46,698 bases of DNA, from positions 1 to 46,698 of the forward strand of contig JASEFN010000002.1 in NCBI GenBank assembly GCA_030018355.1, written 5' to 3'. The notes below the pieces were generated by a model. The model ran no database searches and was not told where the DNA came from. It worked only from the letters and a program-made list of their open reading frames with translations. This DNA comes from Caldisericia bacterium. Its GTDB lineage: Bacteria > Caldisericota > Caldisericia > B22-G15. A program made the translations under genes and the position numbers. Below, piece by piece: positions 12,746-31,614 of this stretch (position 1 is the first letter of the stretch; every line of letters begins with the position of its first letter).

Positions 12746-12766
12746 CCTTCCCGCGAAGGCGGAAGG
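12746..12766 (-). promoter_or_regulatory. Hairpin between riboswitch and btuF start (expression platform candidate)
   Basis: On the minus strand CCTTCCGC and GCGGGAAGG pair with one bulge around CTTC. The hairpin lies between the aptamer and AAGGAGG of btuF. The CCTTCC strand could alternatively pair with the purine-rich Shine-Dalgarno region, which suggests translational control. Confidence 0.5.
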
Positions 12767-12779
12767 TAAAATTTGATCA

Positions 12780-12917
12780 GGCAGGTCTCCTGGCTTGTGG
12801 GCGCTGTCTCTTTTCTTTAGACCTTCCCAGTTTCCCAGTGGCCTAAAGATAAAGGAAGATACCCACTCACAGTTGCGGGGCAGCGAGGGATTTTCACCCT
12901 CTTCCCTACACCTGACC
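12780..12917 (-). promoter_or_regulatory. Cobalamin (AdoCbl-type) riboswitch
   Basis: The minus strand shows the conserved cobalamin aptamer. It begins with the GGTCAGGTG-like start of P1, followed by GGGTGAAAATCCC, then CGCTGCCCCGCAACTG, the GCCACTGGG segment and the B12 box GCCAGGAGACCTGCC at 12780-12794. It precedes btuF and should lower B12 uptake when cofactor is plentiful. Two spurious ORFs overlap it. Confidence 0.95.
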
Positions 12918-12923
12918 ACTTTA

Positions 12924-12951
12924 ATTTTACCACAATTCTTTTTACTAACAA
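12924..12951 (-). promoter_or_regulatory. Promoter of the btu operon
   Basis: On the minus strand, TTGTTA (12946-12951) and TAAAAT (12924-12929) are 16 nt apart, with TGG before the -10 box (extended -10). The transcript would begin just ahead of the riboswitch aptamer. Confidence 0.55.
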
Positions 12952-23445: not shown

Positions 23446-23470
23446 AACAAGGTATAAAGGAAAGTTATTT

Positions 23471-23502
23471 AAAAAGCCCTGGGGCATTTCCCAGGGCTTT
23501 TT
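23471..23502 (+). terminator. Rho-independent terminator of the second subtilase
   Basis: AAAAAGCCCTGGG (23471-23483) pairs with CCCAGGGCTTTTT (23490-23502) around GCATTT, followed by ATTTTTA. Confidence 0.93.
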
Positions 23503-23521
23503 ATTTTTAATCCTCTCAAAA

Positions 23522-23554
23522 ATGTTACAAAGGTGCCTGACACCATTGTAACAT
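23522..23554. repeat. REP palindrome copy 8
   Basis: ATGTTACAAAGGTGCC-T-GACACCATTGTAACAT lies 20 nt behind the terminator. The core has one substitution (GGTGCC). Confidence 0.85.
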
Positions 23555-23709
23555 GTGTAAAATTTGCACAGTGGTGTGAAAATTGGAAACAGAGAAAAGT
23601 GAATGATTATATTAATATTTTTAAGAGGTGTGAAAAAAATTAAACAAAAATTTTTTAATTTTTATTTTCAAAATTTTTAAAAAGCGCTTTATAAATCTTA
23701 TTTTTAATT

Positions 23710-23737
23710 TTGGCATAAAATTTGCATATTATATTTT
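23710..23737 (+). promoter_or_regulatory. Promoter of the S-layer-like gene
   Basis: TTGGCA (23710-23715), a 16-nt spacer and TATTTT (23732-23737) are followed almost at once by the first strand of the structured leader. The leader to the S-layer ATG would be about 235 nt. The stretch 23555-23709 shows nothing else. Confidence 0.5.
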
Positions 23738-23740
23738 GGA

Positions 23741-23817
23741 GTTTGAGAATTGGCAGTAACTCCAAACCGCTGGGTAAAAACCAGAGTGGGTAGGAGACGC
23801 CAAGAGTTTTCTCAAAC
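23741..23817 (+). promoter_or_regulatory. Nested multi-stem RNA structure at the 5' end of the S-layer-like mRNA
   Basis: Four nested stems are visible. GTTTGAGAA (23741-23749) pairs with TTCTCAAAC (23809-23817). TTGGC (23750-23754) pairs with GCCAA (23799-23803). CTCC (23760-23763) pairs with GGAG (23793-23796). CTGG (23770-23773) pairs with CCAG (23781-23784). I do not recognise a known riboswitch core (not cobalamin, c-di-GMP-I, SAM, THF, lysine or fluoride). It could be a 5' stabiliser, a protein-binding site or an unclassified sensor. Confidence 0.65.
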
Positions 23818-23849
23818 TCAAATTCAAAGAAAGGAGGTGAGAGTAAGAG

Positions 23850-23984
23850 GTGAAAAAGAAGAGGTTTCTTATCCTAAAGGTTAGGGAGGATAAGAAACAT
23901 AACTTTTTAATTAAGACCCTAACCCCGCTTGAGGACGGATTCCTCAAAAAATTTATAAAAAAGGAGGTTTACGCTTATGCGTAA
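23850..23984 (+). CDS. Putative 44-residue basic leader peptide overlapping the S-layer-like start
   Basis: A GTG at 23850 lies 9-10 nt behind AAAGGAGGTGA, a stronger Shine-Dalgarno than most here. It opens a frame of 44 codons rich in Lys, Arg and Phe, beginning MKKKRFLILKVREDKKH and ending KKEVYAYA. The stop TAA (23982-23984) overlaps the S-layer ATG as ATGCGTAA, a classic translational-coupling arrangement. It contains AGG, CTA, ACC and CCG codons that are rare in this AT-rich window, as expected if RNA structure constrains the sequence. Nothing resembles a known protein. It may be a cis-acting leader whose translation opens the hairpins in front of the S-layer ribosome site, or a chance frame. 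Confidence 0.4.
   Translation: MKKKRFLILKVREDKKHNFLIKTLTPLEDGFLKKFIKKEVYAYA
23864..23947 (+). promoter_or_regulatory. Hairpin, possible pseudoknot and second hairpin before the S-layer-like ribosome site
   Basis: GTTTCTTATCCT (23864-23875) pairs perfectly with AGGATAAGAAAC (23887-23898). Its loop holds GGTTAGGG (23879-23886), which is exactly complementary to CCCTAACC (23917-23924), so an H-type pseudoknot is possible. TTGAGGA (23929-23935) and TCCTCAA (23941-23947) form a further hairpin with loop CGGAT. AAAAAAGGAGGT follows. Confidence 0.7.
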
Positions 23985-26900
23985 AATTTTAGCATTTATT
24001 TTAATTACATTAATGGCCCTCTCCTTTGTCCCATTCAGAACGACAAAAACAGTTTCAGCACAATCTGCCAAAAATGCAACAATGATTGTAAATGCATTAT
24101 GGAGTGTAACATTTAATGCTCCTCCAACTAGAAGCACTGTTAATTCAGATCTAAGACCTTATTCTTTCTTATGGTATGTTACTGGTTATACACCATTTTT
24201 AGGAACAGATGTTTATTTAACAGTTATTTCTGATGCAGCTGGATCAAAATTATTAGATCGATATTATGCAATAGTAGCTATTGATGGCAATAATGGTTTA
24301 CACCTATTTCTTGATCCAGATACAACCTTTGAGACACCAGCGACAACAAATAATACAAGAAGATATGGACCATTTCCACTTGGAAGCACACTATCAGATT
24401 GGACAATTGTAGTTAGTGGAAGAAACTTTGTTTTAAACTTCTTAGATAATGATTATTATGATGATTTAAACGAAGGAGATGGACTTGTTTTATTTGAAGT
24501 TTTACAAGCATCATGCTGCGGTAATGAAGTAGTTTATGATATAGCAGTTGAATCTGATATGGAACCTGCCTACTGGACAGAAAATCTTCCAAGAAACCCA
24601 ATTATTGCAGCAAGATTGTCAAAAGGAACAGGAACTGATATTTTAACTCCAATTTCTCAACAACTTTCATGGTCAGTTGCACAAAAAGTTGCAACCACAG
24701 TTTTCCATAATATAAAATTAACAAACAGAGAATTTCTTGACCTTGAAATTTGGTTTGATGACGGTTATGATAATATTACCGCAGATGATTATACATTAAT
24801 TTCTCACAACACATCTGATGATTATGTACCATTAACACAAGGAGAACTATGGTTTGGTGCACTTGGTGGAAACTATGGTGATTTACCTAACCAAGGTCAA
24901 GTAATTAGATACACCGATGTTTATGGAAATACACAATATTTCTTAGATGATGGTGATAACATTGTTGAACCTGGCGAATTCCTTTTAGAACCTATTGAAG
25001 ATGAACTTTATTTTAAAGTAAAAAAACAAATCGATATTGTAGATTCTACCGTATGGACAGGTACACCATATGTACCTATCGCAGATGTTAATGTAATTGA
25101 TATCGATGGAGATACTTCTATTTCAGCAGGAGATACAGTGGTTGCAAATGATACTTTTTATTATGAAACTCCACTTTTATATACTGGATTAACATTAAGA
25201 TTTGGTGATTTTAGAGGTTTTGATATACCAGTTCTACCAGGAAAAATGAATCTTGATGTTAAAGTTTATGAAACATACCCAGATGGAAATGTAGTTGATA
25301 AATTAAGAGTAGAAGAAACTTACACAGTGGTTGTTTCTTTGCCTGATGATTGCACATTACCACCTGGAGCAAGAGTACATGTTTTAGCACAGGTTCCAGG
25401 TTATTATCCAGTTAATTTAGGAAATGCTCCTAATCCACCATTTGTTGAAGGTTATGAAACAGTGCTTCCTGGTGGAGATTTCTATCTTAGTGCATCACAA
25501 AAGAGTTATAGATTTGAAGTTACACCATGGAGAGGTTCACTTGCAAAAACAATGAAACATGACTACCCACAATTTAGAATTTCAGCATATGCAGAAATTT
25601 GTGGAGCAATCGGTCCAGAAGATGGAACATATGGAAATATTGTTGTTCCATTCCCTGCAGATGCTTATGTTCAAAATGACCCTGATGACGATTATCTATT
25701 TGTAAATGGTGTATTTAGAAATATGTATGATTGCTGGTTTGAAAAGTATTATCCAATCGAACCAGAAGTAATTGTTGCAACTGGTGATAGAGATTGTATC
25801 TCTTATCTTGATCAAAGATTTCCAAACTTTGGAATCTATCTTGAAAATATTGATAACCCAATAGATGTTGATGATCCATCTGGACCATTCAATCCAGCAG
25901 AAGAAGAGTATCTTTACGCCTATGTAAATGCAAGTGGCGGTGGAATATTATGGTATGCTCTTGTAAAAGATGCAAATAATAATCTTTACATCTTACAGAA
26001 AGGCTCATCTGTTGATTATCTATGGCTAATGGATGACACTGCTGGACCTCTAACCAATGTTTATGATTGGAGTCCAAACAACGAAATTCTTAATAGTACA
26101 CCAATTTCTGTTTCTCCAGCAATGACATTTGTTGATTCAACAAGTGCACCACTTAAGAACGGAATTCCAGATCCTGGAGAAACTGTTGGAACAACAGGAA
26201 CAACATATACAATTGTTGACTATCCACTTCCAGTTGGAATAGTTAATAGTATGGTTATGGTTCCAGTCAAACCACCAACAAAAGAGTGCGATGAAATTAA
26301 ATTTACAGTATTTACTACAACAAATTACTGGAATATTCTCTATCCACTTGAGAACACCTATGTTCAAGAAAATAATTTAGATACAAGAGATAGTTATTGG
26401 TATGATTATCCAACCTTCCCATTAAATCTTGACTTCCAATTAATTGATTACATGACAAAAGAGCCAGTGACTGTAAAAACAGCAAAAATTTATGATATCA
26501 ACTTTGCAGAGTTTGAAATTGTAGATGAAGGCTTAAGAAATTCTCCATTTGGAAATCCATATCCTCCATATGGACCAGCAGCAAATCAATTCCCATGGGT
26601 ATTAAGAAACTTAACAATGGAATTAAGATCTTATCCAGGTGGTCAATCTAACCTTCCAGGCTCAGGTTGGGGATATAACTGGCAAGGACAACCAAATACA
26701 GGACCAGTAGGTGCATCTAATCCATCTGTTCTTTTACCAAATGGATTTAATTCAAGACATGCACAATTTAGAAATGTATTCTGGAAACTTGGTACAGAAT
26801 ACTATCCATTAACAAATTATACAATAAGATTTATTCTAAAAGATAAATATGGATATCATTTAACACCAACAAAAGTAGTTGTGGAAGGAATCAAAGCAAG

Positions 26901-30741: not shown

Positions 30742-30755
30742 GACACCTACAGGAA

Positions 30756-30790
30756 CCACAGGGGACTCCTTATCATGGGGTCTCCTGTGG
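30756..30790 (+). repeat. Stem-loop behind the S-layer-like gene
   Basis: CCACAGGGGAC (30756-30766) pairs with GTCTCCTGTGG (30780-30790) through one G-U pair. There is no T tract, so it is more likely a 3'-end stabiliser than a terminator. Confidence 0.65.
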
Positions 30791-30810
30791 GGATTTGGGT
30801 TAAAAAGATA

Positions 30811-30842
30811 AAAGGGCTGGAGTTACTCCAGCCCTTTTTCTT
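30811..30842 (+). terminator. Rho-independent terminator of the S-layer-like gene
   Basis: AAAGGGCTGGAG and CTCCAGCCCTTT surround a 3-nt loop (TTA), followed by TTCTTTT. Confidence 0.93.
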
Positions 30843-31250
30843 TTAAAAAATTTTTTTAATTAATATAAACTTTCTAATGCAGTAACTTCAGCATCTGTTG
30901 TGTATATATATTAATTAATATTTCACATATGATTCTATAACATGAAGTTCTTACTAAGAAAAATTATCAATTACCGTATTAGTAAAGTTGATTTTGATCC
31001 TAATATATATCATCAGCTAATTTAACTTATACAATTTGGTAAGCAAATATCGAACATATCCATACATATCGAATATAGATAACTACAGAACAGAAATTAA
31101 CATGACTCTCACTAGAAGTTCTGCATTTAATTAAATATCTTGTATATTACATATAAAAACATAATTAATTTTCATTCAATTCATGCAATATTTTTCTTCA
31201 AAAGCATTACAATATATAATCAATGCAACAGAAAATGAGGGGGTGAAACG
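30843..31250. other. Intergenic region with unusual base texture
   Basis: About 400 nt carry no supported gene. The texture differs from other spacers here, with alternating A/T and few long T runs, plus short direct repeats: ATATCGAA at 31049-31056 and 31068-31075 approximately, and GAAGTTCT twice. A TATAAT at about 31216 may serve the small ORF that follows. I see no foldable RNA or known element. Confidence 0.3.
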
Positions 31251-31358
31251 ATGATCCCATTTGAAAATTTTGGTTTAACAATTGGGAATTTAATAAATTA
31301 TTCCTTTGGTATTTTGTTGGTTTTAATAGGTGTTACTCTCATAAACAACTTCATATAG
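31251..31358 (+). CDS. Small single-span membrane peptide (35 residues)
   Basis: ATG 31251 lies 6 nt behind GAGGGGGTGA, one of the strongest ribosome sites in the window. The frame encodes a short N-terminus (MIPFENFGLTIGNLIN) and one hydrophobic span of about 16 residues (YSFGILLVLIGVTLI), ending NNFI. It was found by reading the spacer and lies alone between the S-layer-like and PHP genes. The Shine-Dalgarno and clean hydrophobic segment support a real gene. Function is unknown; small membrane proteins of this size often regulate transporters or act as toxins, but nothing here decides. Confidence 0.55.
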   Translation: MIPFENFGLTIGNLINYSFGILLVLIGVTLINNFI

Positions 31359-31614
31359 TAAGATAGAACCAATATTATGATAAGACAAAACTTTTTTGAC
31401 TGTTTTAAGATAGACTTTTAGTTTAAAAGTGGTTTTTGAATTAAAAAGAAAAGCAAAACTCTCATTACTCTTTTTGCTTAAATATTAAGCATTTCATTAA
31501 TAAATAAAAACTCAAACTTTAAATTAAATCTTGAATCCTAACTATTTTTAAATTTATGTTTAAATTTGTTAAATGTTTTTAATTTTTGAAAAAAGTAAAA
31601 AGATTTATACAAAA
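31359..31614. other. AT-rich spacer
   Basis: No coding frame or RNA is supported. A weak stem (AAGCAAAA near 31451 with TTTTTGCTT near 31472) followed by A/T sequence could end the small-peptide transcript. Confidence 0.3.

What the first reader, a model, noticed from the sequence alone, without database searches (positions are those of the whole stretch)
23741..23976. Elaborate structured RNA leader of the S-layer-like gene
Within 235 nt there are four nested stems (23741-23817), a perfect 12-bp hairpin whose loop GGTTAGGG is exactly complementary to a downstream CCCTAACC (pseudoknot potential), and a 7-bp hairpin just before the ribosome site. The GC-rich pairing elements stand out in an AT-rich region. 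I cannot match this to a known riboswitch. It may stabilise a very abundant mRNA, sense envelope state, or autoregulate through surface-protein binding.
Basis: partly seen in the sequence, partly recalled or inferred. Interest (0 to 1): 0.75.

Follow-up and report, generated by a model that had tools for sequence, protein, structure and literature searches.

The report
Sigma-54 mRNA with protective-looking folded leader
A giant surface-protein gene of an uncultured Caldisericota bacterium appears to be switched on by the alternative sigma factor 54, and its message seems to begin exactly at the foot of a strong hairpin followed by a ribosome-site decoy and a pseudoknot; this leader most likely keeps an abundant mRNA alive, but it is found in no other genome we could search, so its function is inferred rather than shown.

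Summary
No Rfam family matches. The new evidence lies just upstream. Bases 23711-23726 form a sigma-54 promoter (TGGCA-N6-TTGCA). The genome encodes RpoN, an AcoR-type activator beside an aco operon with the same kind of promoter, and an NtrC-type two-component pair. This promoter puts the transcript start at about 23737-23738, so the mRNA would begin 1-2 nt before the first stem. The leader also holds a perfect Shine-Dalgarno sequence (23830-23840). The 44-codon ORF after it does not look coding. Other giant surface-protein genes in the sampled genome have less structured upstream regions. Best reading: a sigma-54-driven, single-gene mRNA with a 5' stem plus ribosome-binding stabiliser, like the ompA, aprE and cry3A leaders. 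Riboswitch or surface-protein autoregulation has no positive evidence. Function remains inferred.

The parts
23470..23503 (+). intrinsic terminator of the upstream S8-protease gene; separates it from the surface-protein transcript
   Evidence: 15-pair stem with T tail; 14-bp perfect inverted repeat
23573..23582 (+). candidate upstream activator half-site 1, GGTGTGAAAA (speculative)
   Evidence: direct repeat 54 bp apart; only 3 copies in 1.03 Mb, two of them here
23627..23636 (+). candidate upstream activator half-site 2, GGTGTGAAAA (speculative)
23711..23726 (+). sigma-54 -24/-12 promoter TGGCATAAAATTTGCA, exact GG-N10-GC spacing; predicted TSS 23737-23738
   Evidence: only exact match in the window; rpoN present; same core before a 68-aa membrane protein gene, and a near-identical site before the aco operon next to an AcoR-type activator
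23739..23819 (+). hairpin A: 5'-terminal long stem with four nested inner stems
   Evidence: z -5.7; basal stem stable at 65 C
23830..23840 (+). perfect Shine-Dalgarno sequence AAAGGAGGTGA not followed by a coding-like ORF; STAB-SD-like candidate
   Evidence: sequence; ORF analysis
23850..23984 (+). 44-codon GTG ORF overlapping the surface-protein start by 8 nt; probably not a gene
   Evidence: GC3 50% against 13.5% in genes, codon score in the lowest 0.6% of genes; no family, no homolog
23864..23898 (+). hairpin B (12 bp), stem S1 of the pseudoknot; loop strand 23879-23886
23917..23924 (+). CCCTAACC, 3' strand of pseudoknot stem S2
23929..23947 (+). hairpin C, 7 bp, upstream of the ribosome binding site
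23961..23967 (+). ribosome binding site (AAAAAAGGAGG, core) of the surface-protein gene
   Evidence: sequence
23968..23985 (+). 7-bp hairpin TTTACGC-TTAT-GCGTAAA with the start codon at its loop
23977..30741 (+). 2254-aa secreted surface protein with Ig-like domains and two C-terminal Cu_amine_oxidN1 domains
   Evidence: Pfam
30742..30850 (+). 3' hairpin and intrinsic-terminator-like stem AAAAGGGCTGGAGTTACTCCAGCCCTTTTT after the gene
   Evidence: sequence printed; approximate coordinates, by inspection

Best explanation
The leader is the 5' untranslated region of a sigma-54-transcribed, single-gene mRNA. RNA polymerase with RpoN starts at about 23737-23738, so the transcript begins 1-2 nt before the 11-bp basal stem of hairpin A. 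The buried 5' end should slow 5'-end-dependent decay. A Shine-Dalgarno-like site just after it can hold a 30S subunit without making a protein (STAB-SD-like), and the pseudoknot and hairpin C form further roadblocks and keep the real ribosome site in a single-stranded A-rich spacer. The net effect is a long-lived message for an abundant giant surface protein, under on/off control by a sigma-54 activator. Shown: the sequence elements, their unlikeliness by chance, rpoN and activators in the genome, the promoter match. Inferred: the TSS, the pseudoknot, the stabilising effect and the identity of the activator.
For: Exact sigma-54 consensus with GG-N10-GC spacing, only exact hit in the window; TGGCA-N6-TTGCA occurs 5 times in 1.03 Mb of the genome against 0.64 expected, 3 of them directly upstream of genes; RpoN DNA-binding domain E 1.5e-48; two clear activators, one AcoR-type next to an aco operon with this promoter, one NtrC-type beside a membrane histidine kinase. 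Predicted TSS coincides with the foot of hairpin A. Strong structure, stable at 65 C. SD-like site with non-coding ORF. Other surface-protein genes over 1000 aa in the sample have weaker upstream structure. C-ending codon use 0.228, rank 4 of 410, near GroEL at 0.253, mean 0.114. Precedent: a hairpin or ribosome site near the 5' end stabilises long downstream mRNA in Bacillus (PMC3997798); STAB-SD in cry3A (PMC4113751); an L. acidophilus S-layer promoter directs stable mRNA (title cited in PMC6176008).
Against: No RNA data: TSS, half-life and translation of the 44-codon ORF are unmeasured. No homolog of the leader, so no covariation test. The GTG after the SD-like site is at good spacing and its ORF overlaps the real start by 8 nt, as in coupled genes. 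An RNase J was not recognised in the 73% of the genome sampled by a simple motif scan, so the 5'-3' decay pathway is assumed. High C-ending codon use could also reflect acquisition from elsewhere.
Confidence: 0.45

Rival explanations
1. The leader is a regulatory RNA: a ligand, temperature or protein (perhaps the surface protein itself) changes the fold, for example between pseudoknot and hairpin B or at the start-codon hairpin, and so sets translation.
For: S1 and S2 of the pseudoknot are nearly equal in energy as alternatives; the start codon lies at the loop of a 7-bp hairpin; a second possible 5' pairing TTTGGAGTT/AACTCCAAA exists.
Against: No Rfam match, no second copy or relative in 49 genomes of the class; the pseudoknot does not overlap the ribosome site; the alternative 5' pairing has zero predicted probability.
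Confidence: 0.2
2. The 44-codon ORF is a translated leader peptide or small protein coupled to the surface-protein gene through the 8-nt overlap; the hairpins lie inside its coding sequence.
For: Perfect SD with good spacing, no stop for 44 codons, typical 8-nt overlap with the next start.
Against: GC3 50% against 13.5% for genes; codon score at the 0.6th percentile of gene N-termini and indistinguishable from off-frame; no homolog or family.
Confidence: 0.15
3. The promoter is an ordinary sigma-70 one and the structure is incidental: a lineage-specific leader with no strong function.
For: A weak sigma-70-like match TTGGCA-N16-TATTTT overlaps the site; the leader is not conserved in any searched relative.
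Against: The sigma-70 match is 9 of 12, a level that shuffled sequence also reaches, whereas the sigma-54 match is exact; the structure ranks third of 63 leaders and the pseudoknot occurs in 1 of 4000 shuffles.
Confidence: 0.15
4. The pseudoknot is a -1 frameshift signal (AAAAAG, 5-nt spacer, 12-bp stem).
For: The geometry resembles dnaX/IS-type signals (sequence).
Against: No coding-like ORF enters it and the surface-protein frame has a TAA about 20 nt before its ATG, so no fusion to that protein could result.
Confidence: 0.02

Closest known systems
Bacillus subtilis aprE leader (5' stem-loop plus ribosome binding; reference 109 in PMC3997798)
   Same: hairpin at the 5' end followed by a ribosome binding site
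   Different: here an extra SD-like site, a candidate pseudoknot and a 239-nt length; no half-life data
STAB-SD of cry3A (PMC4113751)
   Same: SD-like sequence near the 5' end that need not start translation
   Different: here it follows a long hairpin and a GTG sits at a usable distance
E. coli ompA 5'-terminal stem-loop (references 92, 95 in PMC3997798)
   Same: stem with few unpaired bases at the predicted 5' end
   Different: sequence unrelated; TSS only predicted here
Lactobacillus acidophilus S-layer gene leader (Boot 1996, cited in PMC6176008)
   Same: S-layer gene whose promoter gives stable mRNA
   Different: no shared sequence known; primary paper not read here
Sigma-54 control of the bacterial exterior (Francke 2011, PMC3162934)
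   Same: sigma-54 promoter in front of a gene for the cell exterior
   Different: the main text of that survey does not mention S-layers

Membership tests
Sigma-54 promoter | -24 GG and -12 GC exactly 10 nt apart within TGGCAY-N5-TTGCW | tested here: met
   23711-23726, 0 mismatches
Sigma-54 promoter | RpoN and an enhancer-binding activator in the genome | tested here: met
Sigma-54 promoter | RpoN-dependent transcription from this site | not testable with these tools
   no expression data
5'-terminal stem-loop mRNA stabiliser (ompA/aprE type) | stem within a few nt of the 5' end | tested here: inconclusive
   met for the predicted TSS (1-2 unpaired nt), TSS not mapped
5'-terminal stem-loop mRNA stabiliser (ompA/aprE type) | loss of the stem shortens half-life | not testable with these tools
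   bench test needed
STAB-SD | SD-like sequence near the 5' end that binds 16S rRNA but does not start translation | tested here: inconclusive
   perfect SD present; following ORF not coding-like but a GTG is at usable spacing
Rfam riboswitch or leader families | match at the curated gathering score | tested here: not met
   none at gathering score in the leader; weak hits are chance-level
Widespread riboswitch class | conserved core in several genomes | tested here: not met
   single copy, no relative in 49 genomes of the class, plasmids or phages
Leader peptide / coupled small gene | codon use like genes of the genome or a conserved peptide | tested here: not met
S-layer protein | secreted, abundant, self-assembling array with wall or membrane anchor | tested here: inconclusive
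   signal peptide-like start, Ig-like and Cu_amine_oxidN1 domains, no SLH domain, no abundance data

The most novel reading that the evidence does not exclude
A lineage-specific RNA device with a 5' stem, ribosome decoy site and H-type pseudoknot that acts as a block to 5'-to-3' decay or as a switch on a sigma-54-driven S-layer-like mRNA, with no relative among known RNA families.
Probability: 0.2. Interest if true: 0.65.

Novelty: new variant of a known kind. Interest (0 to 1): 0.42.

Why it matters
If true, an uncultured lineage controls a giant surface protein by sigma-54 at the promoter and by a folded leader at the message. That would extend sigma-54's link with the cell exterior to S-layer-like proteins and give a compact natural leader for testing how 5' stems, decoy ribosome sites and pseudoknots protect mRNA in AT-rich bacteria.

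Tried and rejected
Ortholog leaders for covariation: none. DNA, protein and covariance searches of the family and class, genome contigs, viral contigs, plasmids and phages gave no second copy. Leaders of 16 distant homologs in two other families of the class share no sequence or fold. The only same-genus blastn hit is just the RBS/signal-peptide region. The 14-bp dyad at 23522-23554 was first taken as an activator site; it is a dispersed intergenic palindrome with about a dozen copies, so rejected as specific. The 44-aa ORF as a gene: rejected on codon use. Its weak hits in relatives overlap other genes on the opposite strand. Frameshift signal: rejected because of the TAA just before the ATG. 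Synteny: the neighbouring downstream protein in two relatives lies at or near a contig end, so the equivalent leader is not available.

Full report
Observation. The stretch between the S8-protease gene (ends 23445) and the 2254-aa surface-protein gene (starts 23977) was read directly. Hairpin A spans 23739-23819: an 11-bp perfect basal stem and nested stems of 5+2, 4, 5 and 3 bp. It folds at -36.6 kcal/mol, z -5.7, and none of 200 shuffles is as stable. The basal stem keeps a pairing probability of 0.94 at 65 C. Hairpin B is a perfect 12-bp stem (23864-23875/23887-23898). Eight bases of its 11-nt loop (23879-23886) are the exact complement of 23917-23924. Hairpin C (23929-23947) has 7 bp. The 301-nt stretch as a whole has z -4.5.

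Chance. Of 4000 dinucleotide shuffles of the leader, one holds a stem of 9 bp or more with an 8-base loop partner within 60 nt. In 627 kb of the same genome the few comparable places have loop partners that are entirely or mostly A+T. Among 63 long leaders sampled from the genome, this one is the third most structured by z-score. Among genes for giant secreted proteins in the sample, its upstream 220 nt has the lowest folding energy: -58 kcal/mol, the next being about -44. The pseudoknot geometry (L1 3 nt, no junction nucleotide, S1 12 bp, S2 8 bp, L3 18 nt rich in A and U) is that of an ordinary H-type pseudoknot. In a fold without pseudoknots, however, S1 and S2 compete on equal terms, so the pseudoknot is a prediction.

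Bases 23711-23726, TGGCATAAAATTTGCA, match the sigma-54 -24/-12 consensus with exact GG-N10-GC spacing; it is the only exact match in the window. The genome encodes RpoN. It has an AcoR-type activator directly before an aco/pyruvate-dehydrogenase-like operon, whose promoter TTTGGCACAAATTTTGCATAT is of the same kind. It also has an NtrC-type response regulator next to a membrane histidine kinase. The identical core TGGCATAAAATTTGCATATTA precedes a gene for a 68-aa membrane protein with weak PspB similarity, E 5.8e-4, below cut-off. The core TGGCA-N6-TTGCA occurs five times in 1.03 Mb, against 0.64 expected, and three of these lie directly before genes. The overlapping sigma-70-like match is weak. 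A strong terminator at 23470-23503 isolates the unit from the protease gene.

What follows from the promoter. Sigma-54 starts about 12 nt after the GC (established knowledge), that is at 23737-23738. The basal stem starts at 23739. The mRNA would therefore begin with one or two free bases and then a long stem, which is the arrangement known to slow decay that starts at the 5' end (PMC3997798, and references there).

Middle of the leader. Bases 23830-23840 are a perfect Shine-Dalgarno sequence. A GTG at 23850 opens a 44-codon frame that overlaps the surface-protein start by 8 nt, which looks like a coupled small gene. Its codon use argues against that: GC3 is 50% where genes have 13.5%, and its score lies in the lowest 0.6% of gene N-termini and is typical of off-frame sequence. 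It has no family, and the weak hits in relatives overlap other genes on the opposite strand. A Shine-Dalgarno sequence near the 5' end that serves mRNA life rather than translation is known as STAB-SD from cry3A (PMC4113751). The true ribosome site (about 23961-23967) lies in an A-rich single strand, and the start codon sits at the loop of a 7-bp hairpin.

The gene. Pfam finds two Cu_amine_oxidN1 domains and Ig-like domains. No S-layer family model matches, so 'S-layer-like' remains an inference. The share of C-ending codons is 0.228 (rank 4 of 410 genes; mean 0.114), near GroEL at 0.253. This agrees with high expression but could also reflect acquisition from elsewhere. A hairpin and a terminator-like stem follow the gene (sequence).

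Relatives. The genome is a Caldisericota one, placed by a relative named as such. The N-terminal third of the protein has no ortholog in its family. Distant homologs occur in two other families of the class, with unrelated leaders. The leader itself was found nowhere else: not in the family by blastn beyond chance, not in 49 genomes of the class by covariance model of hairpin A, not in plasmids or phages, not twice in its own genome sample. Rfam has nothing. Absence of homologs speaks against a widespread riboswitch but not against a lineage-specific leader.

Judgement. The structure is real. The sigma-54 promoter is likely (about 0.85 in my estimate). The function as an mRNA-stabilising leader of an abundant transcript is the best single explanation but rests on architecture and precedent only (0.45). 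A regulatory switch or protein-binding role is possible (0.2), and a translated leader ORF less so (0.15). Candidate activator half-sites GGTGTGAAAA at 23573 and 23627, 54 bp apart, are speculative.

Noticed in passing
window 9659, 13450, 14378, 23523, 37775 (approx.); L164 11024 and 16635; L168 11175 and 16179; L153 12098; L159 12318 (approx.): A dispersed intergenic palindrome TGTTACAAAGGTGYCTGACACCATTGTAACA, about a dozen copies in the sampled genome with variation in the arms; REP-like or mobile in origin, unexplained.
   Followed up: partly
L162 10986-11229 (G000 C2:290986): A 68-aa membrane protein gene with weak PspB similarity directly behind a sigma-54 core identical to that of the surface-protein gene; possible envelope-stress member of the same regulon.
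   Followed up: partly
L167 633-5640: AcoR-type sigma-54 activator followed by a sigma-54 promoter and an aco-like dehydrogenase operon.
   Followed up: yes
window 12763-12930 (-): Cobalamin riboswitch, 98.6 bits.
   Followed up: no
window 31250-31400 (approx.): Small ORF MIPFENFGLTIGNLINYSFGILLVLIGVTLINNFI after GAGGGGGTG in the long gap behind the surface-protein gene; small hydrophobic protein (sequence).
   Followed up: no
L105 and L106, about 100-150 nt upstream of the start codon: Surface-protein leaders of another family hold a strong hairpin (ATGAAGTCACAGATTCATGGTGTGGCTTCGT type) that differs between the two by apparent paired changes.
   Followed up: no
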